From assembly GCA_017893485.1 (NCBI GenBank), contig CM030366.1:100700953-100764952 (forward strand): 64,000 nt of DNA, given 5' to 3'. The notes under the pieces were generated by a model, which was given only the letters and a program-made list of their open reading frames with translations, was not told the origin of the DNA and searched no databases. The position numbers and the translations under genes are program-made. The DNA comes from Hemerocallis citrina (taxonomy: Eukaryota; Streptophyta; Magnoliopsida; Asparagales; Asphodelaceae). The first letter of the stretch is position 1. Each line of letters begins with the position of its first letter. Shown here one piece after another: positions 5,340-64,000 of the stretch.

Positions 5340-5814
5340 TGTAGAACCCCGTATTTTCAGATATTATTTTAAATATTTGAAAATGAATTTAAATTGATTT
5401 TTGGAGATTTAATAAATATTTTCAGAAAAATTTATCTTTTTACACGTGCAAAACACGTGCAAATACTTTTGAGGAATTTGAAAAGTTAAGTTTTCTTTAT
5501 GAAAAATCATCATTTATTATTTGGGATTTATTTAGTATTTTTCCATATTTTTCTGAAATTAATTGGAACTATTTGCAATTTTTGAGAAAAGAAGGACCTT
5601 TTTTGCAAATTTGACATTTTTAAGGGTTAAAATGTAAAAATGTATACCCTGGACGTTTTGAACAGTATTGGTTGAGATTTAGAATTATATTTTACTTTTA
5701 AATCCAAATTTAAATGAATTTTATTGAATTTCCAAGACTAGATCTATGTATGTAAAGTTGTATTTTGAAGGGGATCATTTTGCAAAAGTGTGGGTGAAAC
5801 CCTAAACCTAATCC

Positions 5815-5828
5815 CGGGTATTTAAAAG
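5815..5828 (+). promoter_or_regulatory. TATA-like promoter of the solo LTR
   Basis: GGGTATTTAAAAGG lies about 480 bp from the LTR start, a normal U3 position. It is followed by an AAG/GA-rich leader and a GT-containing donor-like site near 5946. This sets the orientation. Activity is unknown. Confidence 0.45.
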
Positions 5829-6482
5829 GATTTTCCCAGTAGTCATTACTGAAAATACAGAATTTTGGTGATTTGTTTTGGTGGAGGAAGAGGAAGTTTT
5901 GATCTAGCAAAAGGAAGGCTTTTTCGTTGAATCTTCTCAATTCAAAGGTGAGTGACATTGTGTGTTTTGTTTTGTTTTGTGAATGATATAAATTTGTCTT
6001 TTTATTGATCCATGCATGCGAGTGGCAATGTTGTTTGATTTGATGTTGTGAATGATATAGATCTTGTATTGTGGTATGATTCATGTGAATAATGATCGTT
6101 GTTTGTACCACGTTGTGAAATCTACGAATGATTAGTAGATCTTTGTTTATAAAATTGTATTGCTAAAGGCATGATTAAGATTTGAGTATGGTTATGATCG
6201 GATGATGAACATCTAGATCTTATATATTGTAAATCAAATTTTTAGTGAGAGTTGTGAAAGAGATTTAGTATTGAGAAACCCTAATGAAAGAATTAGTAAT
6301 CTAGAACATGAGAACTTGAGTTTTGACATATTTGATATTTCGAGTAATATATCCATAATGAGGATTAGTTGAGATTTGTCATTTTTTCTGAATACGAACT
6401 ATTATCATAAACAATGAATCTTTAGAAAACACCAGCTTTGATTTTGTATTCAGATCTAAATTATGAAAAACTGTAGGCCGAC

Positions 6483-6830
6483 AGCCGACTGGTCTAATTA
6501 TCAGTCGACTGGTATGACCCTACTGATGTATCATTAGCCTTTTGAAAATCCGATCTGGACAGCCGACTGAGACCCTTGTCAGTCGACTGGTGTACTTAAA
6601 ACTTACTTTGTAAAATTATGTCAGTTTCTTGTCTGGACAGTCGACCTATAACTCCTTTAAGTCGACTCATATACTTAGAATATTTTCTTGAGAATTATTG
6701 GAATTTGTCTCGGGTAAGTCGACCGATGACTTCTTAAGTCGACTTATATGACTTAGTTTATTTTTGTAAAATTTTGGATATTGGTCCTCTGGACAGTCGA
6801 CTTACTACAGTATAAGTCGACTGGTACTGA
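6483..6830. repeat. 78-bp tandem repeat with paired AGTCGACT palindromes
   Basis: Paired palindromes start at 6483/6503, 6561/6581, 6639/6660, 6717/6737 and 6795/6815. First members are exactly 78 bp apart each time and partners are 20-21 bp apart. The octamer varies only slightly (AGCCGACT, AGTCGACC) while the intervening sequence is strongly diverged. The palindromes are therefore the best preserved part of the unit. Confidence 0.85.
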
Positions 6831-7189
6831 TGGATTTTGTAATTTGAGTGTTCTTTCGAATAATTGGCTTTTAGATAATTCAGTCTATACCTTATCTGCA
6901 GTTAAGCATTTGATTTGTGATATTCAGTTGAGCTAATTTTGTTTAGTGGAAAGTTGATTAGGACTTTTGAGTTTGAGTCTCTAGAGGTGAGTGACCCTAG
7001 TATGCCGGTGTTGAGTTATTTTATTGAGGCCCGTAGAGGCATTTCAGTTATTCAGTTTTAATTTTAGTTCGGTAGGGTACACTACTCTAGGAGATTCGTT
7101 GAGTAATTAAATAACCCACAAATAATAAGGACAGGCACTAGTGGTGATATGATGAACGAGAACATGGGTTATGCACCTCAGTATGGCTT

Positions 7190-7475
7190 TAGATGTGGAA
7201 TTTAATCTCCGGAATTATCCAAGTAACTTACTTGAGATGTGGGATTTATCTCCGGAATTATCCAGGTAAATTACCTGCGATGTGAGATATATCTCTGGAA
7301 TTATCCAAGTGATTTGCTTGCGGTGTGGGATTGATCTCCAGAATTATCAAAGTCGAGGCGACGCACATGTGGTATTCATGTGATGATGTGTCAATGCTTA
7401 GATGTGGGATGATCTCCGAAATTATCCAGGTAAAATACCTGAGATGTGGGATCTATCTTCGGAATTATCAACCAT
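7190..7475. repeat. 43-bp tandem repeat with a hairpin per unit
   Basis: The core CTCCGGAATTATCC recurs at about 7207, 7250, 7293, 7336, 7414 and 7457, giving a 43-bp period with one longer step. Most units then carry a 13-bp inverted repeat such as AAGTAACTTACTT or AGGTAAATTACCT. Confidence 0.8.
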
Positions 7476-8195
7476 GGGCTAATTCCCACAGTTTATCTTT
7501 ATCTCGTAGTAGTCATCGTGATAGGATTAGTTGCATAGTGGGGGATTGAACCCTATGAAGTGAAGACGTTAAGGGCTTGCACCGAACCTATGTAGAATGA
7601 GATGCATAGACTTCGACAAGTACGCATTAGAGAGTCTGCATTAGAATTTGTGTTTCTTGACTTGGTTTTATGCACGTGGTTTTCCGGTTTTCTACACCTG
7701 ACACTTAGTTTAGTCCCACTTGATGTTTTCATGTTTCCTGTCATTTCTTACTTTCCATATTCTTATTTAGTATATGTTGTTTAAGAATTTATGAGGTATG
7801 TTCATTTATGTTGTTTGTTTGTTTTTATGTCATTCACACCATTTATGGCTGACCCCTTTAGTTTTGGGGGTTAGGGATCATCTCTAGCCTCATATATTGC
7901 AGGTTGTTGCTTAGAGTTGGAGGTTGGATGCTTGAGTTGGTTTTTGAGAAAAAGTGATTTAATAAGAGTTTTGTGTAAAATTTGTAATAGCAGTTTTGAG
8001 ATAAATTTGTGTTGTAAAGAAAAGAAAATTATGAGTTGAGATGTTTTGAATTCCGCTGTGCTATGCAAGTGATTGTTGTATTAAAAGTTGAAAAAATTAG
8101 TGGTGTTGGTTGTGTTTAATATTATATTGAAGTGGATTGCTGGGATTGTGCCACTTATTTTCTAAGATATTTTATTAGAAATTCGGGGCGCTACA

Positions 8196-21725: not shown

Positions 21726-21794
21726 TTTATTGAAGGCATCATCACCCATGAGGTTGTTCAGCAAAAAACATTATACATACTTGGTAATCTTACT

Positions 21795-21850: not shown

Positions 21851-21994
21851 TTTGGGCTACAGCAGCGGCGACAGGTCCAAGAGGAAGAATCGCCAGAGCG
21901 TTCAAGGTGTAGGAGTACGAAGATGAGGAGGTGATGATTGGACCCACTGTGGACTGATACGGAGAGTCTGTAGCTCATTCTTTAGGACATTGTT

Positions 21995-23964: not shown

Positions 23965-25440
23965 CTAGTATTTTAAAAAATTAGAAAGTGCTTCACATAT
24001 GCAAATTTTAAGTAAATATAAATATGAATGTCCTCACTTTCCTTTTCATATAACTTTTTTAAAATATAATTAAAAAATACTATAAAAATAAGTTGAACTC
24101 ACGAAATGATGGGTTGCAGCATCAAGCAAAATCCTCAAGGTCAAAAGAAAATGCAAACTTGGTATTTTTAACTCTTTTTTAAAATTTTCCTTAAAATGTT
24201 ACAAGTGATAGGAACTTCTCTTTATCTATTATTCCAACATTTTTAGTGTATGAGGTACACCTTAGTGGTGATATTTTTATATTTTTTTTTGATGAAAAGA
24301 AGGTCAAAAAAATATTTTTGATGAGTTGGTGATCTTTTTATTCCAACATTTTTAGTATATGAGGTACACCTTAGTGGTGATCTTTTTAATATATTTTTGA
24401 TGAAAAGCAAGGTCAAAAAATATTTTTGATGAAAAGCAAGCTGAAAAAATATTTTTTCAAATGTAATTGAAAAATAATATAAAAATAAGTTGAACTCACG
24501 AAATGATGCCTTGCAACATCAAGCCAAATTCTCAAGGTCAAAAGGAAGTGCTAACTTGGTATTTTTAACTCTTTTTTAAAAAAAATTTCCTTAAAATGTT
24601 ACATGTGATAGAAACTTCTCTTTATCTATTATTCCAACATTTTTAGTGTATGAGGTACACCTTTGTGGTGATTTTTTAAAATTATTTTTGATGAAAAGCA
24701 AGGTCAAAAAATATTTTTGATTAGATGGTGATTCTTTTATTCCAACATTTTTAGTATATGAGGTACACCTTAGTGGTGATTTGTTTAAAATATTTTTGAT
24801 GAAAAACAAGGTCAAAAAATATTTTTTAAAATATAATTAAAAGATAATATAAAAATAAGTTGATCTCACGAAATGATGGTTGCAGCATCAAGCCAAATCC
24901 TCAAGGTCAAAAGGAAGTGCAAACTTGGTATTTTTAACTTTTTTTTAAAGTTTTCCTTAAAATTTTACGTGCCATAGAAACTTCTCTTTATCTATTATTC
25001 CAACATTTTTAGTATATGAGGTACACTGATCGTTTAAAATTATTTTTGATGAAAAGCAAGGTCAAAAAATATTTTTGATGAGTTGGTGATCTTTTTATTC
25101 CAACATTTTTAGTATATGCACCTGAGTGGGTAATCTTTTTAAAATATTTTTGATGAAATGCAAGGTCAAAAAATATTTTTTTAAACATAATTAAAAAATC
25201 ATATAAAAGTAAGTTGACGAAATGATGGGTTGCAGCATCAAGCCAATTCCTCAAGGTCAAAAGGAAGAGCAAACTTGGTATATTTAATTCTTTATTTAAA
25301 TTTTTCCGTAAAATGTTACATGTGATAAAAACTACTCTTTAGCTATTATTCCAACATTTTAGTATATGAGGTACACTTAGTGGTGATCTTTTAAATTATT
25401 TTTGATGAAAAGCAAGGTCATTTTTTTTTTGATGAAACAG
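23965..25440. repeat. 350-390 bp tandem repeats, second duplication copy
   Basis: Four units are marked by CGAAATGATG at about 24101, 24499, 24877 and 25217. At 24158-24175 the reading GGTATTTTTAACTCTTTT is the uninterrupted target of the hAT element found in the first copy. Confidence 0.8.
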
Positions 25441-25671
25441 AGATTCGCACTTGCTCTTCGTCACATAGTACAGGGGGAAGAAAAGATATCCTTTAGGTCA
25501 ATTTCCTTTAATTGAGAGTTTCTTTCAGCTAGAGCTACGTCTTGTGACATTTAGAGATATGAAGGTAAAAAAAGAGGACAAAAGAGTGAAGGACTACCAT
25601 TTCAATTATACTCAACTTTAATTTTTTACTATTGTAGATTCATTTATATGAATGCTGTGAAATTATTGACA

Positions 25672-25906
25672 CTAGTATAATGTACGTGTGATGCACGTGT
25701 AAAAAATTAAAGTCAGCAAATTAAATCAATATATATCGAATAAGAAAAAAATAGTTTATATTTGAATATTTTGATTTGGGCTACACGTGCACTACACACT
25801 TATATTTGTTGAATATAGTTTGGACATATATTATACGTGTTTATATAGTTACAAAGTTAGAGATTGTTTGTTACAAATCCCAACTCTCCCATTAAAATAG
25901 AAGAGA
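25672..25906 (-). mobile_element. Non-autonomous Helitron, 235 bp (copy 2)
   Basis: This is the duplicate of 21491-21725 with a better 3' stem (ACGTGCATCACACGT on the minus strand) before the CTAG end. It is the same length, in line with duplication after insertion. Confidence 0.85.
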
Positions 25907-26128
25907 TTTATTGAAGGCATCATCACCCATGAGGTTGTTTAGCAAAAAACATTATACATACTTGGTAATCTTACTCATATTTTATTTTATTTTATTTTAT
26001 TTTTGGGCTACAGCGGCGGCGACAGGTCCAAGAGGAAGAATCGCCAGAGCGTTCAAGGTGTAGGAGTACGAAGATGAGGAGGTGATGATTAGACCCACTG
26101 TGGACTGATATGGAGAGTCTATAGCTCA

Positions 26129-26145
26129 TTCTTTAGGACATTGTT
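26129..26145. repeat. 17-bp target duplication (left) of full-length LINE
   Basis: TTCTTTAGGACATTGTT here is repeated at 33761-33777. Variable 10-20 bp duplications are typical of LINE insertion. Confidence 0.9.
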
Positions 26146-26395
26146 TTTTTTTTTTTAGGGAAAAGGTGGAATAAAGCCACCCTGTTTCATTAATAAGCTG
26201 TTAATAAAACAACCCCGGTGTACCGAGAAGGATACAACAGTACAAATCATGAAAGACAAAACAGTGCAAGAAATAAAAATATAAACCCCCAACAAAACCC
26301 TGGGGGGTGGGTCGAATCCTCCATACAAAAACCAAAAGTACAGTAGGTCAAGACCAAGCTAGCATAGGGCGCAGCTACTGAGACGGTTCCGGGCC

Positions 26396-27205
26396 TCAGT
26401 CCAGTGTCGGCCCAAATTCTATCTCCTCATCATCAAAGTCCTCCACCTGGAAGACTCTGGCAATCCTCTCTCGCGCTCCTGTGGCGGCAGCTGTAGCCCA
26501 AAAAGAAATAAGATGCATGATATGAGTAAGATTACCAGAAATACTATTACATGAAGCACAAAAATAAAAATTATTTCTGTCTAGCCATAACACCCATGTA
26601 GTTGCCGCAATGGCAATGTACCACGCATCCTTCATTTCATGGCGAACCTTTGCGAATTTGGGGCCAACCCACAAATCCTCATATTCGCCGGGATAGTCAC
26701 TTGTTCCTAGGGGTCGTAAAACCTCAACCATAATCGCCTTACTCCTTGGACAGTGGATAAAAAGGTGGTTCAAGTTCTCCGTGTGCATGTTGCAGAATCC
26801 ACAGTCGGTCGCAATCTGGGGTTGTCTTCTGGCCAGGTTTTCTCTGGTGAGAATCGCGTTATTGAGCAATAGCCAAAGGAAGACTCTGACTTTAAGAGGT
26901 TTTTTTGCCTTCCATAATACCTGTGCCCAACTGGGTCTGCATCCCCGATAGTGAATTCGATGGTACAGGGACCTGTCCGTGAAGGCTCCCTTGGGATCGA
27001 GTCCCCATCTCATCTGATCTGGACCTTGGTCACATCTCGTCCCGGTCCGTGTGATGTGTGCTTGTAATTCGAGCAGTTGCTGATGTAACCTTGGAGTAAG
27101 AGCTCCTCGGAACGACGGCTTCCAACTTCCCCTCTTCCAAGCCTCGGCTACAGATATGTTGGGCCGATTCGTATAGTCATACAACTCGGGGAAAGCTTCC
27201 TTCAA
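26396..27205 (-). pseudogene. LINE ORF2 C-terminus (zf-RVT), copy 2
   Basis: This 269-residue block has CGFCNMHTENLNHLFIHC preceded by the conserved LWKAKKPLKVRVFLWLL. It shares a frame with 27230-27505 and 27578-28408, so the C-terminal half of ORF2 is in one frame interrupted by stops near 27206-27229 and 27506-27577. Confidence 0.8.
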
Positions 27206-27229
27206 GTTATGTGCACCACACCATTTATC

Positions 27230-27505
27230 TCACCAAAATCTGGTGGATCGCCCATTACCGATAGTTGATGTAACTGCTGAATTGAACGACCTGCTAGCTT
27301 TGGTAATTCCTTTCCAGAATCGCGACACTCTGGACCCTACTCGGAAGCCCAGGTTTCTCGTGACTTTTCCTTGAAGGTACGGATGAATGAAGTCCTGCCA
27401 TCCTTCCTCGCTGTGGTGAAAAACCTTCCACCACCATTTCCCCAACAGGGCAAGATTCGTGTCTCTAAGGTCGATGATGCCGAGCCCTCCATGCTTCTTC
27501 TTCAT
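27230..27505 (-). pseudogene. LINE ORF2 segment between RT and zf-RVT
   Basis: The block reads KKHGGLGIIDLRDTNLALLG and WWWKVF, a very common signature downstream of plant LINE RT domains. It is part of the same ORF2 as the flanking blocks. Confidence 0.75.
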
Positions 27506-27577
27506 GTAAGCGATATTCCATTTGATCAGGTGATAATCTCCCCTGTTCGAGTCTGCCCCTTTCCAAAGGAATCATTT

Positions 27578-28408
27578 TCAGATTTGGTCAATCCGTTGGA
27601 TAACCCACTTAGGGAGCTCAAAAAAAGACATGTAGTAGATGGGCAGATTGGAAAGTACTGAATTGATGAGTACAACTCTTCCTCTTAGCGAAAGCAATTT
27701 TTCTTTCCAGCCAGTGAGTCTGTCCTCCACCCTGTCAATAATAGGCAGCCAATCTGACTTAGTAAGTTTCCCTGGCCTGAGTGGAAGCCCTAAGTATTTG
27801 ATTGGAAACTCATTCCTCACACAGTTTAATATGGTGGCATGTTCCCGCGCTTCTTCATCGGAGAGTGTAATGGGAATCAGTGCACTCTTGTGGAAATTTA
27901 TCCGGAGTCCTGACCAGACTTCAAAACAGTAGATGGCTCCTTTAAAGCAGACTGTTTCTGATCTGGTCCCATTTCCAAATAGTAGGGTGACATCAGCGTA
28001 TTGGAGAATCGTGCACCCTTTATTGGAACTGCTGCTGGCTACGGGCTTAATCCAACCCTTTTTCTGGCAATTTTCTAACATTCCCCTCAGTACATCTGCT
28101 ACAATCGTGAATAAGAGCGGGGATAAAGGGTCCCCTTGCCGGAGACCTTTCTTGCACGGAAATGGCGGTCCTGACCTCCCATTCACCGATATTGCCGTTT
28201 TATTTGTAATTAAACACTGTTTGATCCATCTAACCCACTTGTCCCCGAATCCTCTCCCTCTGAGAGCTTCCAGCAAGCACTCCCAATCGAAAGATTCGTA
28301 TGCCTTCTCAAAATTCAATTTAAGGAGGAAGTTCTTAGAGTTGCTCTTATAGCAGTGGTGGATAACTTGTTCAGCCGTGGTCACACAATCTAGGATACAC
28401 CTGCCCAT
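27578..28408 (-). pseudogene. LINE ORF2 reverse transcriptase palm
   Basis: The block has LKLNFEKAYESFDW (motif A region), GLRQGDPLSPLLFT (motif B) and CTILQYADVTLLF (motif C). Motif A has asparagine and motif C has valine where catalytic aspartates are expected. The second change (GAC to GTC at 27989-27991) alone would abolish catalysis. The frame differs from the upstream RT block 28371-29297. Confidence 0.85.
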
Positions 28409-41854: not shown

Positions 41855-43234
41855 TGTTGATTCTTGATTTTGATGATCACAACATAGTGCAACATGTGTC
41901 TATGTTATACAGCTAATATTGCAGTGCACAGACCAAAGAAAATTCTAGCTGAACAAATGAACAAGCTCAAAAGAATAACAGATGAAGACTTCAAGACAAG
42001 GATCAAGACTCAATTCAAGACTCAAGACTTCAAGCTCAAATGTGTTATATTGTTGTGTCTTGTAAACATTGTATTTTACATTTGTTGAGTCTTAGTCTGT
42101 TGTAAAGCCTTGTCACACACACACACACTCAAAATTTCATAATGTGTGTCTCTTAAAAACCCCCAAAAAGAGTCAAAACAGTTTGAAGAATTTTAACTCT
42201 TGAGTACCAGTCGACTTAAGCGTCTGCCAGTCGACTGATAGTACAAAACTGTTTAAAATTATTCAAACTCTGATCAGTCGACTCATATGGCAACCCAGTC
42301 GACTGTTCGAGAGCTTTTGACCGTTTTCTGTTTTTCAAAATCGAATTTTTTCAAACTCAAAAGCTCAGATCCGTTGGTTGACAGTTGAGTAACTGTTTTT
42401 CCCAACATTCAGGAGATCAAACTCTTTAAATAGAGTTTCAGATCTCACTGAAAAGATCTCTACACATTTTCATACATTCGAGCATTCTTGTGAAAAACAT
42501 TCTAAGTAATTTTCTGTGAGAAACAAAGCTTTCAAGTTCATACACTTTGGTTCTCTACATTCAGTCCAGTATAGCATTGAATTCGCTCTGGACTGAGTAT
42601 AGAAGTCGACCTATTTTGTTAGCCACGTGCATCAACACATACACCAACAAGGCTATAGGTTGACTGTAAAGTATTCTTGTACTCTTGCTCTCGGTTGGAG
42701 AGTGTTTTTGACTCTTGGTTGTAGAGTCGGTGTCTTTTCACTCTTGGTTGTAGAGTGGGTCTGCTTTCTCTGGTTGAGAGAAAGGACTACGGGTTAGACA
42801 AGGTTGTTGTCGTAACGCCGTAGGGTATTCTTGTAATTTTTCAAGAATAGTGGAAATCTCAAGTGGGTTGCTTGGGGACTGGATGTAGGTCGGGAGGATC
42901 AAACCAGGATATATCTTGTGTACTCTGTGATTGATTATCTTGTGTTTGCATTTACTTCTGTTTATTTTAATTTTGCAAAAAGTTTCTGGACAGTCGACTT
43001 CTTGAACCATCAGTCGACTGGTCATTGCCGTTTGTAGTTGTAATTTCATTATGCCTTCAGTCGTCTGTCTCATTCAGCAGTCGACTGCACAGAGTTGTTA
43101 TTTTCAATTATTTTGAACATATCAGTCGACTGGTCCTTATCTCAGTCGACCGCACCGAGAAAATTTTCGCAGTTTTTAATAAACACTATTCACCCCCCCT
43201 CTAGTGTTTGTTGTCTTGCCTACAGGATCCAACA
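41855..43234 (+). repeat. 5' LTR of Copia element
   Basis: This is 1380 bp, TGTTG...CAACA. It carries a CA-microsatellite near 42115 and paired AGTCGACT palindromes at 42209/42229, 42276/42297, 42992/43012, 43059/43079 and 43124/43144. A TATA-like CTTTAAATAGAG lies near 42422, followed by a leader-like region. Confidence 0.93.
42422..42433 (+). promoter_or_regulatory. TATA-like box in Copia 5' LTR
   Basis: CTTTAAATAGAG is followed after about 30 bp by CACTGAAAAGATCTC, a plausible transcription start area. The paired palindromes at 42209-42304 lie 120-210 bp upstream, in the position of U3 regulatory elements. Confidence 0.5.
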
Positions 43235-43236
43235 CT

Positions 43237-43248
43237 TGGTATCAGAGC
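43237..43248 (+). promoter_or_regulatory. Primer-binding site, initiator tRNA-Met
   Basis: TGGTATCAGAGC lies two bases after the 5' LTR, a perfect match to the standard plant primer site. Confidence 0.95.
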
Positions 43249-43261
43249 AAGGTTACATGCT

Positions 43262-44830
43262 ATGGCAACTACTTCAAATACAAATCAGTACCATGAAGGC
43301 CAATCTACACAACGGCCACCACTATTTGATGGAACGAACTACAACTATTGGAAGTGCCGAATGCGAATCTATCTCCAATCAATCAACTATGAGATATGGC
43401 AAATGACAGAGACGGAATACACTGCACCTACCATTCCATATGCACAATGGAATGATGATCAAAAGAATCAGACTATGAACAATGCCAAAGCAATGAATGC
43501 CTTATTTTGTGCACTTACAAAGGAAGAATTCAACCATGTATCAAATGCTACAACCGCACATCAAATTTGGCATACACTCGAGGTAACACATGAAGGAACG
43601 AATAAAGTAAAAGAGTCTAAAATTTCTGTTCTTGTCCACAGGTTTGAGATGTTCAGAATGAAGGACAATGAGACTGTGTCTGAGATGATTACCAGATTCA
43701 CAGACATCACAAACTCTCTAGTGGCGCTTGGAAAGACTTATACTCAAGCAGAGATGGTTAGAAAAGTTCTACGTGCACTCACCCCAGAATGGGAGAAGAA
43801 AACCACAGCAATAGAGGAAGCGAATGACCTATTAATACTTACTCTCGAGAATCTTGTTGGCAATCTCATGGCATATGAGGTCCAACTTGAAGATCGAAAG
43901 AAAGATACAGAATCACACCAAGCAAAGAAGAAATCATTGGATTTTAAAGCCATGACAGACTCAGAAGATGAGGAAGAAGATGAAGAAGAAATAGCAATGT
44001 TCACTCGGAGATTCAAGAAGTTCTTAAAGAAGGGTAAGTTTTATTCTAAAGTTAAAGATTCTAATGACCCTCCTACATGTTTCAGGTGCAATAAAATTGG
44101 TCACATGAAGAAGGATTGTCCCTTAGAGAATGCAAAGAACAAGGGAAAATCATCCAACTTCAAGAAGGACAAATTTCCTAAGAACAAGTTTGCCAAGAAC
44201 AAGAAGGCTTATCAAGCTACATGGGATGATAGTGATTCATCTTCCGAAGAAGAAACGGATGAAAATAACGAAGTGGCAAATGTGTGTTTCATGGCTGCAC
44301 AAGAACATGTAAGTAATGATTATGATTACGAAGATCTTCTTGATGCTTTTAATGAAATATTCCAAGAGCTAAAGAAAGAAAAGATTAGAGTTAAGAATCT
44401 TGAGAAAGTGAATCAATCACTTAATCAAGAAAATTTTAACCTTGATAAGGAAGTCAAATCCTTAAATTCTCGCCTTGCAAGTCTAGATACTGATCTTGAA
44501 ATTCTCAACAAGAATTATGAAGAGATTTCAAAGAACGTATCTAAGTTCAACAAAGGCAAAGAGAATTTAAATGATATGCTTCATCATCAAGTTACATCTA
44601 GTCAAAAATATGGACTTGGTTTTAAAAAATCTTCAGTAAAAGAATCTCCTGTTTTAAACACTAGTAAGAATAAATCAGCATCTATTTCTAGTGTTACACA
44701 CAAGTTGTATGATTTCTTTGCAAAGCCAAAGGTTGTTAATTTCAGTGATAAAAGCAAAACTAACATTCGGTTAAGTCGACTGAACCATACAACAGTCGTC
44801 TGTCCAGAGAAAGTGGATCTTATTCGATGA
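43262..44830 (+). CDS. gag: Copia gag polyprotein
   Basis: The frame opens at ATG 43262 (MATTSNTNQYHEGQ), just after the primer site, giving about 522 residues. The N-terminus has PPLFDGTNYNYWKCRM, the gag signature of plant Copia elements, and the UBN2-type region follows. A CCHC knuckle (CFRCNKIGHMKKDC) lies near residues 278-291 after an acidic run (DSEDEEEDEEE). The second half is coiled-coil and Lys-rich, making gag longer than in Tork or Ale lineages and typical of Sireviruses. The last codons contain the AGTCGACT palindromes. The stop overlaps a downstream ATG as ATGA at 44827-44830. The frame is intact. Gag would form the particle and bind RNA. Confidence 0.9.
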   Translation: MATTSNTNQYHEGQSTQRPPLFDGTNYNYWKCRMRIYLQSINYEIWQMTETEYTAPTIPYAQWNDDQKNQTMNNAKAMNALFCALTKEEFNHVSNATTAHQIWHTLEVTHEGTNKVKESKISVLVHRFEMFRMKDNETVSEMITRFTDITNSLVALGKTYTQAEMVRKVLRALTPEWEKKTTAIEEANDLLILTLENLVGNLMAYEVQLEDRKKDTESHQAKKKSLDFKAMTDSEDEEEDEEEIAMFTRRFKKFLKKGKFYSKVKDSNDPPTCFRCNKIGHMKKDCPLENAKNKGKSSNFKKDKFPKNKFAKNKKAYQATWDDSDSSSEEETDENNEVANVCFMAAQEHVSNDYDYEDLLDAFNEIFQELKKEKIRVKNLEKVNQSLNQENFNLDKEVKSLNSRLASLDTDLEILNKNYEEISKNVSKFNKGKENLNDMLHHQVTSSQKYGLGFKKSSVKESPVLNTSKNKSASISSVTHKLYDFFAKPKVVNFSDKSKTNIRLSRLNHTTVVCPEKVDLIR

Positions 44831-45057
44831 GATCAAAACCTCTTATAAGTCGACCTAGTGTATCTACCAGTCGACTGATGTACACCAACAGTCGACTGAA
44901 GGACACTAATAAGATGACTGGACAGAACAAATTAGTATGGGTTCCAGTCAGTCTGAATCAGAATGATAGAATTGCTTATATTAACTCATATATATTGAAT
45001 GTATGTAATTCTACTTATTATATTCCTGCTTATGGAGGAAGATCAAACTCTTCATAG
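44827..45057 (+). pseudogene. Copia gag-pol linker frame
   Basis: This short frame starts at the ATG overlapping the gag stop and encodes SRPSVSTSRLMYTNSRLKDT, made from the palindrome repeats, then NKLVWVPVSL, resembling the WVP motif just before Copia protease. It ends at TAG 45055, and the protease lies in another frame. It may be a remnant of the gag-pol join or a short reinitiation ORF. Confidence 0.5.
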
Positions 45058-45131
45058 GTTTGGTTTCCCCCAAACTAATGTGTTTTGGACCCAATAAAAA
45101 GGGTACCATATTTACCTTAAACTTTTTATAG

Positions 45132-45488
45132 GTACCCAAGAAAGAACGCTGGATATTAGACAGCGGATGTTCAAAACACATGACAGGACATGCCAACCTA
45201 CTATCCACCATTCAAAGTTTAGATGGAGGAACCGTCACCTTTGGAGATAACAACAAAGGCAAAGTCATCGGTATTGGCATGGTCGGTAAAATATCTAACC
45301 CAATTATAGAAAATGTGCTATTAGTTAATGGTTTAAAGCATAATCTTTTAAGCATTAGTCAATTATGTGATAAAGGGTATAAAATAGTTTTTGAAAAAGA
45401 TGCGTGCTTGATTTATGATTCTACTATGCAAAATGTTGTTTTTCAAGGTTTTCGTAAAAATAATATTATTGTGTTTGAATGCAATTGA
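45132..45488 (+). pseudogene. Copia aspartic protease and start of integrase region
   Basis: After a TAG at 45129 the frame reads VPKKERWILDSGCSKHMTG, with DSG the protease active site. It continues with VTFGDNNKGKVIGIG and LLSISQLCDKGY, the normal Copia protease to GAG-pre-integrase transition. It stops at 45486-45488. The next domain is in another frame, so a one-base indel lies near 45475-45488. Cleavage of gag-pol would be its role if expressed. Confidence 0.8.
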
Positions 45489-48213
45489 TTTTTCAAATGA
45501 TTTTTGTTTAATAGCCTCTAACAATGAATCTTGGTTATGGCATAGAAGATTTGGACATGTGAACATGAAAAATCTCTCAAAATTATCTAAATATAACCTA
45601 GTTAAAGGACTGCCAAAACTATCTTTTAAAAAGGATAAGTTATGTGATGCATGTCAACTAGAAAAACAAATCAAATCCACTTTTAAAACAAAAGACGTAA
45701 TCTCTACTAGTAGGCCACTTGAATTAATTCATATGGATTTATTTGGTCCTACTAGAGTTGCTTCTTTAAATAAAAGTAGATATGTATTTGTTTTAGTAGA
45801 TGATTTTTCAAGATTCACTTGGACATTCTTTTTAAAACATAAAAATGATGCTTTTGAGGAATTTGCACATTTTTGTAAACGTGTTCAAAATCAAAGATCT
45901 CTAACCATAGTCACTATTAGAAGTGATCATGGTGGAGAATTTGAAAATGAAACATTTACAGAATATTGCAACAAGAATGGTATAACACATTCATTTGCAT
46001 TTCCTAGAGCTTCACCACAAAATGGAGTGGTTGAAAGGAAAAATAGGACTTTGCAAGAATGCGCACGTACTATGCTTGTTGAAAGCAATCTACCAAAGCA
46101 TTTTTGGGCTGAAGCTGTTGCTACAGCTTGTTATGTTTTAAATAGAATTCTTCTAAGACCTAAACTAAAGAAGACTTGTTACGAGTTATTTTTTAATAAA
46201 ATTCCTAAAGTCTCTTACTTTAAGACATTTGGTTGCAAGTGTTTTATTCTAAACACAAAAGATAATTTAGACAAATTTGATCCTAGATCTAATGGGGGTA
46301 TCTTTTTAGGATACTCAAATAGGAGTAAAGCATATAGAATTTTCAATAAGTCTACAATGACTATTGAAGAATCAATGCATGTTACATTCAATGAATCCTT
46401 ACCTTCATCAACCTTAAATAAAGATGATGAAACTGATTTATCACCTTTAGATAATGTGATTAAATCCTTAAAGCAAACTAATCTATCTGATAAGTCGACT
46501 GATAAGGTCTCCCAGTCGACTGAAGAACAAGTCAAGTCGACTGATCCGATTGTGATATCTTCAACTTTACCAAAGTCATTTGTTGAAGTTAAAGATCATC
46601 CTCATGACTTAATAATTGGTGACATCTCCCATGGTATTCAGACACGTTCACATGTTAATATGATCTCTCATACAGCATTCTTGTCGGGTTTTGAACCCAA
46701 AAATATACAAGAAGCTTGTGAGAATGAATATTGGATAAATGCCATGCAAGATGAACTAAACCAGTTTATAAGGAATGATGTATGGGATTTAGTTCCTAGA
46801 CCTCCTGATCAGACTATCATTGGTACCAAATGGGTATTCAAAAATAAGTTAGATGAATCAGGACAAGTTGTAAGGAACAAAGCTAGATTAGTTGCTCAAG
46901 GATATAATCAAGAAGAAGGTATAGATTTTGATGAAACATATGCTCCTGTTGCTAGGCTAGAATCTATTCGTATTTTATTATCTTTTGCTTGTTTTATGAA
47001 TTTTATACTTTATCAAATGTATGTGAAAAGTGCTTTTCTTAATGGGTTTATTAAGGAAAATGTTTATGTTAAACAACCACCAGGTTTTGAACATGAACAA
47101 TTTCCAGATCATGTTTATAAATTGAAAAAGGCTTTATACGGTCTTAAACAATCACCTCGTGCTTGGTATGATCGTTTAAAAACTTTTCTTTTAGAAACAG
47201 GATTTGAAATAGGTAAAGTAGACACTACTTTGTTTATCAAAAGAGTTAAGAATGATATCTTAATCATACAAATATATGTTGATGATATAATTTTTGGTTC
47301 TACTAATAATGATCTATGTCAAGAATTTGCTAATACCATGAAAAATCACATGGGTGAACTCAATTATTTCCTTGGACTTCAAATTAAACAGTCCTCAAAT
47401 GGCATATTTATCAATCAAGGCAAATATGCAAAGGAATTACTCAAACGTTTTAACATGGATAGTACTAGTAGTAAATCCACACCTATGGCTACTACTACTA
47501 CTCTTGACAAAGATTTATTAGGTAAGAGTGTTGATCAAAAACTCTATCGAGGTATGATTGGTTCACTCTTATATATTACTTCAAGTAGACCAGATATTAT
47601 GTTCAGCGTATGTTTATGTGCTAGATATCAATCTAGTCCTAAAGAGTCTCATTTAAAAGTAGTGAAACGAATTCTAAGATATATTAAAGGCACATCTGAA
47701 TATGGTTTATTTTATCCACGCACCGATAATTTTCAACTTTTGTCTTATAGCGATGCCGATTTTGCTGAAAGTAAAACTGATCGCAAGAGTACTAGTGGTA
47801 CATGTCACTTTTTGGGACATTCTCTAGTATCTTGGTGCAGTAAAAAGCAAAACTCCGTATCCCTATCAACTACAGAAGCTGAGTATATCGCTGCAAGTTT
47901 GGCATGTGCACAAATTTTATGGATGAAACAAACCTTATTAGATTATGGTATTTCATTTGAGAAACCCTCAATTATGTGTGATAATACCAGTGCAATTAAT
48001 TTATCTAAAAATCCGATTCAACATTCACGTACGAAACATATTGATATTCGACATCATTTTCTACGTGATCATGTTTTAAAAGGAGATATATCTTTAGACT
48101 TTATCTCTACTGATAAACAAGTAGCAGATATATTTAACAAACCCCTTAAAGAAGATACTTTCATTAATTTAAGAAGAGAACTTGGAATTTGTGATTTTAC
48201 TGATATTTGCTGA
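45488..48213 (+). pseudogene. pol: Copia integrase, reverse transcriptase and RNase H
   Basis: One long frame carries the integrase zinc region ([21 protein letters not shown]) and the catalytic core with [16 protein letters not shown] and [13 protein letters not shown] supplying D, D and E. RT follows ([36 protein letters not shown]), then RNase H ([28 protein letters not shown]). RT motif A reads [11 protein letters not shown], with tyrosine (codon 47020-47022) where Copia enzymes have the catalytic aspartate, so polymerase activity should be lost. A 7-residue repeat ([18 protein letters not shown]) at 46490-46545 is encoded by palindromes. Length is otherwise normal. Confidence 0.88.
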
Positions 48214-48715
48214 AAATTGTTTCTGTTAAGTCGACTGTATACTCAAGTAAGTCGACTGTACCGTACTTTCAACTATATCTATTTTTATCTGACCAGTCGC
48301 CTGGTTCCTATACCAGTCGACTGAGTAGTAGTCACAAAATGCTTATTTTCTTCTCGACTCAGTCGACTGATCTCCCTACCAGTCGACTGATCTCCCTACC
48401 AGTCGACTGTCGCGAGCTAAATCATCTTCAGCGACTATTCATCACGTCTTTTGAGATGGAAATCTCTTATCTTTTCACCCGTGATCTTTAATCCTCACCA
48501 TCGATTTCACCTCTCCTTGATCTCAGCCGTTCCCTCACAGTTAAAACCCCCTTTCACCAGCCGTTTTCACTCCTTACCGTTCTCAAGTTTTTACCCCCAA
48601 TTTCAAAACCCTAGCTTTTGGAGAAGAAGATGAACTGCTCTCTCAGTGCTGCTTGTGCTTGCTCCTGCTCGACTCTCTCTCTTTTCTTAGGTATAATCCT
48701 TCCACTTTCTTTTTC
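48214..48715 (+). other. Pol-env intergenic region with palindrome clusters
   Basis: Paired palindromes lie at 48229/48250, 48295/48315 and a triple at 48361/48381/48401. The rest is CT-rich leader-like sequence before the third ORF. No ORF is convincing. Confidence 0.75.
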
Positions 48716-49812
48716 ATGGCACCCAAACGCACTAAACGTTCTCATGAGGGTACTTCCTCTTCCCAAGAATACACCCAATATCTCTTGAGTCCCGATCTTC
48801 TTGATCGTTGGTATGTCTTTTGTACCATTCAAATCTTCCCTGGAAGATTTGTAAATTTTGATGACCTAGACCGTTTTAATCTCATCCACTATTTCAAAAT
48901 AGCAGTCTTTATGACTTTCTCTCATTATCAAACCAACCTAATTACTATCCCCAACTCATTTATTTGTTTTACACAAATATGAGAATTGTGCAAAAACCAA
49001 ATGGGGATGTCTTAATCCGGTCGTCTGTGAAAAATATGAAAATGACACTCACACCGACTAGGATTAATGAAATGTTAGGTATAGATGATGGTGGAATTCC
49101 TCTTGATGAAGTTATTTTAGATGATGCCTCTATATTATCTAAAATTTTCTTACCAAATTCTGGCCCTCCTATGACAAGCAAAAATATCAAACCAATTGCT
49201 AAGCTTGTAGGTAGAATATTAGCCTATAACATCCTTCCTAAAAATGGTAGTTATGACCAATATTCTATTGAGTTACAAAAAGCTATATATGCAATTTTTG
49301 GTAAAATTGCTGTTAATTAGGGTCAAGTTATTTTTTCTAAACTTAATCAAGACCACACTCATTTTCTACCTTTTGGAGGTTTTCTTACTAGAGTCTTTAT
49401 CGCTTTTGGTGTTGATCTCGATTCGGAGATAAATGTTGTTACTCGTTATGAGTGTTTCGATCGTACTAGTTTGGCACGTATGAAACTCCTTGATGCTCCT
49501 ACTCGATCACCCCCTAGGTCTCCTCCTCTCTCCCAAGCTCCCTTAGGTTCTACTTCTAGACCTAGAGCCTCTCAACCTTCTACATCTGATGATCCACCTA
49601 TTCTTCAAGCCAATTATGATGATCCTCGTACCATGTATGACTGTGTTTCCTATCTAATGAAGCATTCAGTCACTGTCGATACCCATCTTTTTAACCTTGG
49701 TTCCAAGCTAGACCATATTAATTCTGAGATAGCCAATCTCACTCATCTCTTCACCTCTCAATTTCATCCTCCTTCTCAAGATGATGATGAAGACTCCGAT
49801 GAAGAAGATTGA
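48716..49812 (+). pseudogene. Sirevirus third ORF (envelope-like)
   Basis: From ATG 48716 the text MAPKRTKRSHEGTSSS begins a basic N-terminus. It is followed by a helical core (LLSPDLLDRWYVFCTIQIF) and, after a frame change near 48965-48980, MTLTPTRINEMLGI and KLVGRILAYNILPKNG. A TAG at 49319 interrupts the same frame, which continues FLPFGGFLTRVFIAFGVDL and an acidic C-terminus (DDDEDSDEED). This resembles the plant-transposon-protein region found downstream of pol in Sireviruses and some Ty3 elements, called envelope-like although function is unproven. About 365 codons with two breaks. Confidence 0.65.
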
Positions 49813-50282
49813 AGATTTTTATTTCTTTTTATTATGTAATCTTCTTTTTAATGCATTTGTTTTTATGTTTTAGACTTTATCATTGTTTTTTTCTTTAATG
49901 CAAACGCTTGTTACTTTGTGCCTTTTTGATGATTCCAAAGGGGGAGAAAAATATCTGAAGTTACATTTTGTTATCCGAGTTACATTTTGTTATCTGTGTT
50001 ATGCGTTATTTTTGTTTTGAATTGTTAACATTGTAACATTGTTCTGGTTATTGAAATTTCTCTGGTCAGTCGACTTCCCCAAGGGATACAGTCGACTGCT
50101 GATAACTACTGCATCTGTTATATTTTTTGTTTGTTCAGTTGCCTGATCTATTGTTAAGTCGACTGATACATTCCTTATAATAACATCTATTTTATGTATG
50201 CATATTGTGTTTTTATAAGGGGGAGCATTTCATCTCTATGCTTGTATATTATCTGTTTATCAGCTATTATGTTGTCATCATC
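49813..50282 (+). other. Copia 3' untranslated region
   Basis: Palindrome pairs occur at 50068/50090 and 50137/50157. Short purine runs (AAAGGGGGAGAAAA at about 49939 and AAGGGGGAGC near 50218) look like extra polypurine tracts, a Sirevirus trait I recall. No gene is seen. Confidence 0.65.
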
Positions 50283-50296
50283 AAAAAGGGGGAGAA
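50283..50296 (+). promoter_or_regulatory. Polypurine tract of Copia element
   Basis: AAAAAGGGGGAGAA ends one base before the 3' LTR and would prime plus-strand DNA synthesis. Confidence 0.9.
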
Positions 50297-51676
50297 TGTT
50301 GATTCTTGATTTTGATGATCACAACATAGTGCAACATGTGTCTATGTTATACAGCTAACATTGCAGTGCACAGACCAAAGACAATTCTAGCTGAACAAAT
50401 GAACAAGCTCAAAAGAATAACAGATGAAGACTTCAAGACAAGGATCAAGACTCAATTCAAGACTCAAGACTTCAAGCTCAAATGTGTTATATTGTTGTGT
50501 CTTGTAAACATTGTATTTTACATTTGTTGAGTCTTAGTCTGTTGTAAAGCCTTGTCACACACACACACACTCAAAATTTCATAATGTGTGTCTCTTAAAA
50601 ACCCCCAAAAAGAGTCAAAACAGTTTGAAGAATTTTAACTCTTGAGTACCAGTCGACTTAAGCGTCTGCCAGTCGACTGATAGTACAAAACTGTTTAAAA
50701 TTATTCAAACTCTGATCAGTCGACTCATATGGCAACCCAGTCGACTGTTCGAGAGCTTTTGACCGTTTTCTGTTTTTCAAAATCGAATTTTTTCAAACTC
50801 AAAAGCTCAGATCCGTTGGTTGACAGTTGAGTAACTGTTTTTCCCAACGTTCAGGAGATCAAACTCTTTAAATAGAGTTTCAGATCTCACTGAAAAGATC
50901 TCTACACATTTTCATACATTCGAGCATTCTTATGAAAAACATTCTAAGTAATTTTCTGTGAGAAACAAAGCTTTCAAGTTCATACACTTTGGTTCTCTAC
51001 ATTCAGTCCAGTATAGCATTGAATTCGCTCTGGACTGAGTATAGAAGTCGACCTATTTTGTTAGCCACGTGCATCAACACATACACCAACAAGGCTATAG
51101 GTTGACTGTAAAGTATTCTTGTACTCTTGCTCTCGGTTGGAGAGTGTTTTTGACTCTTGGTTGTAGAGTCGGTGTCTTTTCACTCTTGGTTGTAGAGTGG
51201 GTCTGCTTTCTCTGGTTGAGAGAAAGGACTACGGGTTAGACAAGGTTGTTGTCGTAACGCCGTAGGGTATTCTTGTAGTTTTTCAAGAATAGTGGAAATC
51301 TCAAGTGGGTTGCTTGGGGACTGGATGTAGGTCGGGAGGACCGAACCAGGATATATCTTGTGTACTCTGTGATTGATTATCTTGTGTTTGCATTTACTTC
51401 TGTTTATTTTAATTTTGCAAAAAGTTTCTGGACAGTCGACTTCTTGAACCATCAGTCGACTGGTCATTTCCGTTTGTAGTTGTAATTTCATTGTGCCTTC
51501 AGTCGTCTGTCTCATTCAGCAGTCGACTGCACAGAGTTGTTATTTTCAATTATTTTGAACATATCAGTCGACTAGTCCTTATCTCAGTCGACTGCACCGA
51601 GAAAATTTCCGCAGTTTTTAATAAACACTATTCACCCCCCCTCTAGTGTTTGTTGTCTTGCCTACAGGATCCAACA
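50297..51676 (+). repeat. 3' LTR of Copia element
   Basis: Same length as the 5' LTR (1380 bp) with about 12 substitutions and no indels that I noted, roughly 0.9 percent divergence. All palindrome pairs are retained; one diverged CGACC half-site has become CGACT. Confidence 0.93.
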
Positions 51677-58530: not shown

Positions 58531-59929
58531 CAGCAAGTCTCCGAAAGCAACATGCAGCCCATACTACATGCGACCCCATCTCAAGCCGTTTCTCCATATG
58601 TAGGGATTGAACCCGCGTTATGAATTCTAATTGTACACAACCTGTTCCTGACAATACTCCATGACTCTGTGAGGTTGCAGAAGGGGTCAAGTCCCCCTAT
58701 GCAGTCTGCTTATGGTGTCTCCGTTTTCCACTACTACCCGGCATGCCGGACCTCACTCGATCCCAGTATATCGGGCATCGTTCCAAAATCAAACCATAGG
58801 GTTTCGCAAGTGAAGGGTTGCACGAAGCCTACCCTGTGGCACCCTCTGGGGTATCGCAAGCGCAGGACTGCCCAAATGCATCCTGTGGCACCCCAGCCAC
58901 GGTATTTTAGGAATTAACAGAGCGAGATAGGCAACCTGTGTCCTCAACCTGTGAGACGGCACCGTACGTATCCCTTTGACGGGAAGGTACAACCCGATAA
59001 CACCACCTAAGATCGGCCCTAAAGAAAGGTTTGGTCGTACGGTGCACCCTACTACCAACTCCCCTTCTTTCGGGCAAAAGGTTAAGTAATGATTTTATAA
59101 GTCACTATCCTAATGAGGTTATTATTCCTATGCGATCTTGCATAGTTTCCAATCATGGTCCAACTCGTGGTCCCTCGATCCAAGACTCTGGTAATAATAT
59201 CTCTCTCACTCATTCCTACCCCTAACTCGGATTCTACCAACACTCTCGGCCCACGGTCAACCTACATTGGTTAAGATCCGTCGACGCCCGAGGTGAGATC
59301 TATCCATTTTACTCTAAGGGGGTAGGATGTGGTCTTGATGGTCGATGACCCTTAGGGTACTTGAAGACCCTAAACTAGCTTTTTCTCAAGCTACAACTAT
59401 TAGCACTTCTCAACCCTTATTGCTATGAATGAAGGGTGCTCATATGCTATGGTTCCATACTAACATTAACTACACCAAGGTAGTTACTCCTACAATTTCC
59501 ACATGGCTCTTTCTTATTACTCAACTTATGGCAATTCGATGTTATGCAATTGCAAGCATCAACCTACCACCACTAAAACATGGTATATGACATAACCATC
59601 AACTTATAACACTCTTGATTGTGAGTGTGTTTTAGCATGCACTTGTAGCGTTCCCAAGCGTGGATACATATATAACTAGTATGAACATATAACATTCCCA
59701 AGCATGCATACATATAGCTAGTATGAACATACAACATTCTCAAGCATGTGTATATACTTCTACATCATCCCTAAAATATGGTAAGTAATTTTACATCAAT
59801 CCTACAACATTCTAAACACAAATATCATTCCTACATGATAGATATTTTTAGAATGACTCCTACAACATTCTAAATACAAATAAATTAATCTAAGCATGGT
59901 AGGTATTTTTAGAATGAATCCTACAACAT

Positions 59930-60718
59930 TTAAAGCATGAATATGGCTTCAAAATATTTTTAGAAGTGATCCTACAACATTTGAAGCATGAATATGGCTT
60001 CTAAATATTTTTAGAAGTGATCCTACAACATTTGAAGCATGAATATGGCTTCTAAATATTTTTAGAAGTGATCCTACAACATGTAAAGCATGAATATGGC
60101 TTCTAACCATTTTTAGAAGTGATCCTACAACATGTAAAGCATGAATATGGCTTCTAAATATTTTTAGAAGTGATCCTACAACATGTAAAGCATGAATATG
60201 ACTTCTAATATTTTTAGAAGTGATCCTACAACATGTAAAGCATGAATATGGCTTCTAATGTTTTTAGAAGTGATCCTACAACATGTAAAGCATGGATATG
60301 GCTTCTAATATTTTTAGAAGTGATCCTACAACATGTAAAGCATGAATATGGCTTCTAATATTTTTAGAAGTGATCCTACAACATGTAAAGCATGAATATG
60401 GCTTCTAATATTTTTAGAAGTGATCCTACAACATGTAAAGCATGGATATGGCTTCTAAATATTTTTAGAAGTGATCCTACAACATGTAAAGCATGAATAT
60501 GGCTTCTAAATATTTTTAGAAGTGATCCTACAACATGTAAAGCATGGATATGGCTTCAAAATATTTTTATAAGTGATCCTACAACATCTAAAGCATGAAT
60601 ATGGCTTCTAAATATTTTTAGAAGTGATCCTACAACATGTAAAGCATGAATATGGCTTCTAATATTTTTAGAAGTGATCCTACAACATGTAAAGCATGGA
60701 TATGGCTTCTAAATATGA
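59930..60718. repeat. 50-51 bp tandem repeat, about 15 units, each with a hairpin
   Basis: Units read GGCTTCTAA(A)TATTTTTAG then AAGTGATCCTACAACATGTA and AAGCATGAATAT. The part CTTCTAAATATTTTTAGAAG is an inverted repeat with 8-bp arms, kept as a 7-bp arm version in the shorter units. More diverged units extend left to about 59800. Confidence 0.9.
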
Positions 60719-63394: not shown

Positions 63395-64000
63395 CTGAGG
63401 TTCAGAAGTGCCTCAAGGTGGCGACGCGTGTCAAAAGTGGTTCGGCGAGGTTTTCCGAAGTCCGAGTGAGAGTTTTTTCTTCGCGTTTGAGCGTCGGTGC
63501 CAAGAATGCTCGGCAAGGCGTGCCGAAGTCCAAAGCGAGAGTTTTTTCTTACGTTTGAGCGTCGGTGCCAAGAACGCTCGGCAAGGCATGCTGAAGTCCA
63601 AAGTGAGAGTTTTTCTCACGTTTGAGCGTCGGTTCCAAGAACGCTCGGCAAGGCGTGCCGAAGTCAAAAGTGAGAGTTTTTTCTCACGTTTGAGCGTCGG
63701 TGCCAAGAACGCTCGGCAAGGCGTGCCGAAGTCCAAAGTGAGAGTTTTTTCTCACGTTTGAGCGTCGGTGCTAAGAATGCTTGGCGAGGTGTGCCGAAGT
63801 TCAAAGCAAGAGTTTTTTCTCACGTTTGAGCGTCGGTGCCAAGAAAGCTCGGCGAGGTGTGCCGAAGTCCAAAGCGAGAGTTTTTTCTCACGTTTGAGCA
63901 TCGGTGCAAAGAACGCTCGGCAAGGCGTGCCGAATTCTAAAGTGAGTTTTTTCTCACGTTTGAGCGTCGGTGCCAAGAATGCTCGGCAAGGCGTGTCGAA
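63395..64000. repeat. 68-bp GC-rich tandem array, continuing past the window
   Basis: Units start (GAGCGTCGGT) at 63489, 63557, 63624, 63692, 63760, 63828, 63896 and 63962, with a diverged unit before them. Each unit has three potential hairpins: GAGCGT/ACGCTC, TCGGCA/TGCCGA and GTGAGA/TCTCAC. ORFs on both strands follow the repeat and are not genes. Confidence 0.92.

What the first reader, a model, noticed from the sequence alone, without database searches (positions are those of the whole stretch)
42209..51640. Helically phased pairs of the palindrome AGTCGACT throughout a Copia element
In this element the octamer AGTCGACT (usually within CAGTCGACTG) occurs mostly in pairs or triples whose members are 20-22 bp apart. 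Positions include 42209/42229, 42276/42297, 42992/43012, 43059/43079, 43124/43144, 44774/44794, 44848/44869/44890, 46493/46514/46535, 48229/48250, 48295/48315, 48361/48381/48401, 50068/50090 and 50137/50157, plus the 3' LTR copies. Pairs themselves recur at 65-69 bp in non-coding parts. Twenty-one bp is two turns of B-DNA, so partners face the same side, as expected for cooperative binding of dimeric proteins. Each site has a central CpG. I recall palindrome clusters with another core in maize Sirevirus LTRs. This core, its phasing, and its presence in gag, pol and untranslated parts appear different. Function is inference.
Basis: partly seen in the sequence, partly recalled or inferred. Interest (0 to 1): 0.85.

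Follow-up and report, generated by a model that had tools for sequence, protein, structure and literature searches.

The report
Paired palindromes shared by unrelated retrotransposons
Unrelated families of jumping genes in this plant genome carry the same short mirror-image DNA word in pairs about two helix turns apart, kept while the DNA around it drifts, which points to one shared DNA-binding protein.

Summary
The 64-kb window holds 39 exact AGTCGACT against 0.4 expected; 32 lie in a Sirevirus-like Copia element. In the 3.78-Gb genome, exact pairs 16-28 bp apart number 219,501 (reversed-word control 40): 106,585 at 20 bp, 70,258 at 21, 27,293 at 22, against 19,329 over 23-40 bp. In 200 kb sampled on nine contigs, 30 of 31 octamers have a partner (at most one mismatch) at 19-22 bp.

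The same pairs occur in LTRs of two kinds of Ty3/gypsy element, and in one gag-pol frame. Octamers outlast their spacers (95% versus 59% identity between two Sirevirus LTRs) and occur in all three reading phases. A second dialect, GGTCGACC (13,428 pairs), is the centre of the palindrome published for a grape Sirevirus.

Best reading: operator-like paired sites for a shared trans-acting dimeric DNA-binding factor that favours element expression or escape from silencing. Site conservation and spacing are shown; factor and effect are inferred. A new variant of the known Sirevirus repeated motif.

The parts
41855..43234 (+). 5' LTR of the Sirevirus-like Copia element (1380 bp, TGTTG..CAACA)
   Evidence: self-BLAST 99.1% to the 3' LTR; 12 differences of 1380
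42209..42304 (.). two AGTCGACT pairs (42209/42229, 42276/42297), about 120-216 bp upstream of a TATA-like TTTAAATAGA at 42425
42992..43151 (.). [quoted passage not shown] 43059 and 43144 have one mismatch)
43237..43248 (+). primer binding site TGGTATCAGAGC, 2 bp after the LTR (tRNA-Met type, recalled)
43208..44830 (+). gag reading frame
   Evidence: Retrotran_gag_2 6.4e-33, zinc knuckle
44774..44897 (.). gag-end cluster: 44774/44794, 44848/44869/44890 (44794, 44848 one mismatch); all five places have a site (at most one mismatch) in a second Sirevirus family
45415..48213 (+). pol reading frame, integrase before reverse transcriptase (Copia order)
   Evidence: gag_pre-integrs, rve, SH3_retrovirus, RVT_2
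46493..46542 (.). triple 46493/46514/46535 inside pol, between integrase and reverse transcriptase
48229..48408 (.). six exact sites between pol and the env-like region (48229/48250, 48295/48315, 48361/48381/48401); the last three are a true 20-bp tandem duplication
48880..49317 (+). env-like region, piece with a sub-threshold Transposase_32 match; the region is broken into several frames
   Evidence: PF20167 8.4e-9, 36 bits against cut-off 45
50068..50164 (.). pair 50068/50090 (22 bp) and 50157 with a two-mismatch partner at 50137
50287..50294 (+). terminal polypurine tract AGGGGGAG; further copies at 49939 and 50218
50297..51676 (+). 3' LTR with the same sites (nine exact)
5340..8195 (.). 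solo LTR of a Ty3/gypsy family, flanked by the 5-bp repeat GCTAA
   Evidence: its positions 1300-2856 are 72.5% identical to L044, where gypsy frames with RVP_2, RVT_1 and SH3_Tf2-1 follow
6483..6822 (.). five pairs (6483/6503, 6561/6581, 6639/6660, 6717/6737, 6795/6815) at 78-bp period; four left members have one mismatch

Best explanation
The unit is a pair of palindromic sites, CAGTCGACTG-like, with centres 20-22 bp (about two helix turns) apart. It is an operator-like binding module for a trans-acting, dimeric, sequence-specific DNA-binding factor, and two dimers would sit on the same face of the helix. Several unrelated LTR-retrotransposon lineages in this genome depend on the same factor. 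The factor is most likely host-encoded, or encoded by one element and used by others. Modules sit in LTRs upstream of a TATA-like box, near the LTR ends, at the gag end, within pol and on both sides of the env-like region. The most likely effect is to keep the whole element transcribable, by activation and/or local escape from silencing. Shown: the sites, their spacing, their sharing across lineages, their conservation against diverging spacers, and their independence of reading frame. Inferred: a protein, dimers, cooperativity, and the direction of the effect.
For: Genome-wide, exact pairs number 106,585, 70,258 and 27,293 at 20, 21 and 22 bp (reversed-word controls 0, 3, 1). All 18 distances from 23 to 40 bp together give 19,329 (control 71). 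In the 20 sampled 10-kb stretches, 30 of 31 exact octamers have a partner with at most one mismatch at 19-22 bp. Of 256 palindromic octamers there, besides TA repeats, AGTCGACT (22 of 31) and GGTCGACC (4 of 17) have exact partners at 19-22 bp; AAAATTTT and TTTTAAAA have 2 of 50 and 2 of 41, the rest none. The same pairs occur in Copia elements, a Gypsy element with SH3_Tf2-1 and a chromodomain match and a Gypsy element with an Asp-type PBS. With octamers masked, the window Copia element has no similarity at E 0.01 to any Gypsy stretch compared. Octamer versus neighbouring identity is 95/59, 93/71 and 100/74% in three LTR comparisons (pooled Fisher 5e-17, columns taken as independent). Inside reading frames the sites encode ST, VD or SR, so DNA is what is kept. 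A second dialect, GGTCGACC, has 13,428 pairs; 49 of the 50 places listed (the first on C1) are at 20-22 bp. Mixed pairs number 2,214 against about 108,600 if the dialects paired freely.
Against: No factor, binding, methylation or expression data could be examined. The pair-to-pair distances are not helically phased. Aligners favour identical words, which inflates site conservation, and sites inside gaps were left out of the identities (1 of 6, 2 of 9 and 5 of 8 sites in three of the five comparisons). In two comparisons few sites survive intact (2 of 6, 2 of 8). The GGTCGACC dialect is less strictly paired: 8 of 17 copies have a partner at 19-22 bp, as many have one at 61-64 bp, and some lie 12-13 bp apart. 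Homotypic pairing could partly reflect descent within families. A conserved TE site could also serve an RNA step.
Confidence: 0.6

Rival explanations
1. Classical promoter/enhancer only: the pairs are ordinary host transcription-factor sites gathered by LTRs, like heat-shock elements in ONSEN-type Copia elements, and the internal copies are incidental.
For: An LTR cluster lies just upstream of a TATA-like box. The abstract of PMC5059998 reports heat-responsive elements in several Copia families, most of them species-specific gains. The Sirevirus motif paper proposes stress-factor sites.
Against: Clusters recur inside gag/pol in Copia and Gypsy elements. The gag-end cluster is kept at all five places between two families.
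Confidence: 0.2
2. TE-encoded anti-silencing system: one element codes for a VANC-like protein that binds these sites and strips silencing marks; other families have acquired the target sites.
For: Dense sites spread along whole elements resemble VANC targets. VANC6 motifs also occur in the unrelated AT9TSD1 (PMC5735166 passages). Mixed-dialect pairs are rare.
Against: No candidate protein was looked for beyond Pfam scans of frames, and none was found. VANC21 sites lie in non-coding parts, whereas here sites also lie in reading frames.
Confidence: 0.15
3. RNA function: pair members fold on each other as a stem-loop, or palindromes promote RNA dimerisation, packaging or small-RNA production.
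For: Two identical palindromes can pair. Maize Sirevirus palindrome regions are small-RNA hotspots (PMC5311732 passages).
Against: 37 distinct pairs carry changes in one member only, and the single pair changed in both is not compensatory. A narrow 20-22 bp optimum is expected for duplex DNA rather than for loop length.
Confidence: 0.08
4. Mutational by-product: tandem duplication or gene conversion spread the word without function.
For: One triple is a 20-bp tandem duplication, and the solo LTR array is a 78-bp repeat.
Against: 2 of 71 distinct pairs show duplicated spacers. Sites outlast spacers. The same spacing occurs in lineages with no similarity found outside the octamers.
Confidence: 0.03

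Closest known systems
Sirevirus repeated motif (RM), Bousios et al. 2010, PMC2829016 (sections 9 and 19 and passages read)
   Same: Multi-copy palindromes in the LTR upstream of a TATA-like box and upstream of env; the Vitis RM CGGTCGACCG shares the GTCGAC centre and contains the second dialect found here.
   Different: The sections and passages read report RMs in LTRs, linker and the start of env; none gives a pair spacing or copies in gag/pol (the words spacing and helical occur only in the reference list). RMs are called absent from the classic Ty1/copia elements compared. Here the sites are paired at 20-22 bp, occur in gag and pol and in Ty3/gypsy elements, and the AG dialect lacks CGG-CCG (one of 13 published RMs, Tnd-1, also lacks it).
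VANC target motifs of Arabidopsis VANDAL transposons (PMC5735166 passages; PMC10398659 abstract)
   Same: Short motif accumulated in many copies across a transposon; VANC6 motifs also found in an unrelated element (AT9TSD1).
   Different: VANDAL elements; motifs (YAGTATTAY, AGTTGTMC) not palindromic; in non-coding regions, as tandem repeats; binding protein known.
Heat-responsive elements of ONSEN and other Brassicaceae Copia LTRs (PMC5059998 abstract)
   Same: Host-factor sites gained by different LTR families.
   Different: The abstract speaks of COPIA families and of sites in LTRs; the factor class is known.
Palindromes of maize Sirevirus LTRs as small-RNA hotspots (Bousios 2016, not held; cited in PMC5311732 passages)
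   Same: Palindrome-rich cis-region of Sirevirus LTRs with high sequence variability.
   Different: Palindromes CACCGGACTGTCCGGTG in OPIE-2 and PREM-2; no pair phasing or Gypsy sharing in the passages seen.

Membership tests
Sirevirus (Copia) | Copia domain order, integrase before reverse transcriptase | tested here: met
   rve 99-198, RVT_2 454-692 in one frame
Sirevirus (Copia) | PPT AGGGGGAG 10 bp upstream of the 3' LTR, with further copies in the linker | tested here: met
   50287 for an LTR start at 50297; others at 49939 and 50218
Sirevirus (Copia) | AT/TG attachment site | tested here: not met
   AA/TG here; the paper gives AT for 20 elements
Sirevirus (Copia) | C-rich integrase signal near the LTR 3' end | tested here: inconclusive
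   C7 run at 43193-43199, LTR end 43234; not compared with the published consensus, which I did not see
Sirevirus (Copia) | env-like region between pol and 3' LTR (some members) | tested here: inconclusive
   broken frames; Transposase_32 8.4e-9 below the curated cut-off
Sirevirus (Copia) | place in a reverse-transcriptase tree | not tested
   no tree was built
Sirevirus RM | at least 8 palindromic copies, in LTR and upstream of env | tested here: met
   8 exact in the 5' LTR, 9 in the 3' LTR, 6 between pol and the env-like region
Sirevirus RM | CGG-CCG signature | tested here: not met
   CAG-CTG in this element; CGGTCGACCG seen in L055, L056 and L051
Sirevirus RM | clustered in the upper half of the LTR (92% in the paper) | tested here: not met
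   4 of 8 exact copies of the 5' LTR start at LTR positions 1138-1270
Sirevirus RM | absent from non-Sirevirus elements (paper compared classic Ty1/copia) | tested here: not met
   same pairs in Ty3/gypsy loci L044, L048, C1:175-186 kb and C1:221-230 kb
VANC-type anti-silencing target | target of a TE-encoded protein that causes hypomethylation | not testable with these tools
   no methylation or binding data
VANC-type anti-silencing target | motif clusters in non-coding parts | tested here: not met
   sites also inside gag and pol frames

The most novel reading that the evidence does not exclude
A genome-wide cis-code is shared across retrotransposon superfamilies. One DNA-binding system, reading two homotypic dialects (CAGTCGACTG and CGGTCGACCG), mostly as pairs two helix turns apart, is required by Copia Sireviruses and at least two Ty3/gypsy lineages, along their whole length including coding sequence. 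It gives about 220,000 exact operator pairs in one plant genome.
Probability: 0.4. Interest if true: 0.87.

Novelty: new variant of a known kind. Interest (0 to 1): 0.73.

Why it matters
Palindromic motifs in Sirevirus LTRs were described in 2010, and the papers I could see name no binder. A fixed pair geometry, a second dialect with much the same geometry, and sharing with Ty3/gypsy elements turn that puzzle into a directly testable search for one protein, with an exact probe. If the binder activates elements or protects them from silencing, it would be a common dependency of much of this genome's repeat load, and a case of unrelated parasites converging on one host handle.

Tried and rejected
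Regular placement every 1.7 kb: cluster midpoints in the window element look regular, but L048 has a 2.5-kb stretch without an exact site, so this was dropped. Extended dyad beyond the octamer: of eight mirror positions in the flanks one matches more often than permuted flanks (0.38 against 0.27) and one less (0.18 against 0.28), the rest as expected; dropped. RNA stem-loop: no compensatory change. Peptide repeat as the selected unit: frames differ. Among the 120 listed pol homologues, 7 have ST, SRL or VD repeated at 7 residues; only that of P0110 (residue 495, in a Ser-rich linker-like stretch) may be in the hinge, so the pol triple is not general. Relatives of pol in viral contigs: none; 10 stretches matched the pair pattern there and were not pursued. 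Never answered by the server: the control palindrome ACTCGAGT and the 19-bp count; the reversed word is thus the only genome-wide control. Paper searches for the motif or for palindromes in LTRs listed no paper that by title or abstract start reports this motif in retrotransposons; listings were capped, and of the papers they listed only PMC2829016, PMC5311732 and PMC11963269 were opened, in parts. PMC5735166, PMC10398659 and PMC5059998 came from two further searches.

Selection effects: of the 11 stretches, six are C1 loci brought in by the pair pattern, and L044, L048 and L051 were picked from the sample because they hold sites, so its 134 of 138 paired is biased. The 20-stretch sample (positions that I picked by hand on C1-C9) and the window are not chosen that way. 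The Fisher test pooled three of five LTR comparisons; the two left out gave 100 versus 97% and 96 versus 76%.
Full report
What is there. The window is G000:C9:100700953-100764952 of a 3.775-Gb assembly. The element is 41855-51676 with 1380-bp LTRs that differ at 12 positions. Its gag and pol match Retrotran_gag_2, rve and RVT_2 in Copia order. The best pol homologue is 71% identical over 97% of the query; the 120 listed range from 47 to 72%, and the names that sources give include Citrus sinensis, Cajanus cajan and Cuscuta epithymum. PPT copies and their place fit a Sirevirus, a C-rich run is present, and the attachment dinucleotide is AA, not AT. The 5' flank ends ATAATCAA and the 3' flank begins ATAATCAG, so a clean adjacent 5-bp target duplication is not seen.

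The sites. The window holds 39 exact octamers against 0.40 expected. All but one lie in two elements. The second is a solo LTR at 5340-8195 with the flanking repeat GCTAA. Its positions 1300-2856 are 72.5% identical to L044, where RVP_2, RVT_1 and SH3_Tf2-1 frames follow, hence Ty3/gypsy. It carries five pairs at 20-21 bp with a 78-bp period.

Genome scale. Pairs of exact octamers at 16-28 bp: 219,501, control 40, chance about 11 at even base use. By distance: 20 bp 106,585; 21 bp 70,258; 22 bp 27,293. The remaining distances of 16-28 bp hold 15,365 by subtraction; the 19-bp count alone was not obtained. Distances 23-40 bp together hold 19,329, about 1,070 per distance. The tool states that counts of repeats can be lower bounds. 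In 20 stretches of 10 kb, 4 contain the octamer, 31 copies in all; 30 of 31 have a partner with at most one mismatch at 19-22 bp.

Lineages. C1:102-113 kb is a second Sirevirus-like family (main pol alignments 86-91%, gag 70-79%). C1:175-186 kb has two copies of an array 8,011 bp apart, a Met-type PBS after the first, and SH3_Tf2-1 plus a chromodomain match (7.8e-5, 23 bits against cut-off 25.1) before the second: most likely a chromovirus. L048 has gag, protease, RT, RNase H, then integrase, LTRs 99.8% identical over the 1280 bp in the stretch and an Asp-type PBS (tRNA names and a Tat/Athila placement are recalled). It carries pairs in LTRs, outside them and in the frame. Exact sites fall in two phases in its frame and in two in gag and pol of the window element, together all three. 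With octamers masked, the window Copia element shows no similarity to any Gypsy stretch at E 0.01; the second Sirevirus stretch shares 190 bp with C1:221 kb, at the start of its block, outside its LTR by my reckoning.

Selection. Between the two Sirevirus LTRs, octamer columns are 95% identical (64 columns) and columns within 40 bp 59% (326). For two gypsy LTRs (window and L044) the figures are 93 and 71%, for C1:90 kb and C1:175 kb 100 and 74%, for L048 and C1:221 kb 100 and 97%, for L048 and C1:203 kb 96 and 76%. Intact sites: 5 of 8, 2 of 6, 7 of 9, 8 of 8, 2 of 8. Five of the changed sites differ at the central CpG (AGTCAACT or AGTTGACT), as expected of methylated copies (inference). In pol the second family has one more site and is 18 bp longer there, which keeps the frame. 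At the gag end all five places carry a site in both families.

Geometry. Among 71 distinct pairs (18-24 bp examined, at most one mismatch in all) the distances are 18 (1), 19 (5), 20 (29), 21 (29), 22 (7). Of 44 pair-to-pair distances up to 100 bp, 29 are 64-75 bp, in Copia and Gypsy stretches alike; 8 are 77-81 bp (solo LTR, L044, one in L051); 7 are 29-57 bp. Only the pair is helically phased.

Second dialect. GGTCGACC occurs 17 times in the 200 kb. 8 of 17 have a partner at 19-22 bp, as many have one at 61-64 bp, and a few lie 12-13 bp apart, so its order is looser. It occurs in a Copia stretch (L055) among others. Genome-wide 13,428 pairs at 16-28 bp. Mixed pairs 2,214 over both orders, about 2% of free mixing. 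CGGTCGACCG is the RM reported for a Vitis Sirevirus.

Reading. Sharp spacing, conservation of sites over spacers, frame independence and sharing across superfamilies fit duplex-DNA operator pairs for one trans-acting factor family with two specificities. No plant factor can be named from this evidence. That the effect is positive for the element is inferred from the sites being kept, and an effect along the whole element from the internal clusters.

Noticed in passing
window 3894-4820 (-): Frame with a Cauli_VI domain (3.5e-10), perhaps a pararetrovirus remnant; the solo gypsy LTR begins about 520 bp away.
   Followed up: partly
window 19973-27599: A 3.4-kb stretch repeated at 95.8% identity, with RVT_1 and zf-RVT frames on the minus strand in or near it: LINE-like copies duplicated.
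   Followed up: no
window 59904-60716 and 63455-64000: Minisatellite of 51 bp in 16 copies and an array of 68 bp reaching the window end.
   Followed up: no
window 17267-19087 (-): 606-aa frame with a hAT-like RNase-H domain.
   Followed up: no
window 7534-7630: About 100 bp of the solo gypsy LTR recurs at 74-84% identity in many other loci.
   Followed up: no
L055:6135-7352, L056:523-623, L051:3555-3690: Sites of the dialect CGGTCGACCG, often within TGCGGTCGACCG, partly paired at 20-21 bp and with more mismatched partners.
   Followed up: partly
L017:1480-1550 against window 46493-46542: A related Sirevirus has an extra AGTCGACT in pol where it is 18 bp longer.
   Followed up: partly
window 3078: One isolated octamer, AAAGTCGACTTT, without partner.
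   Followed up: no
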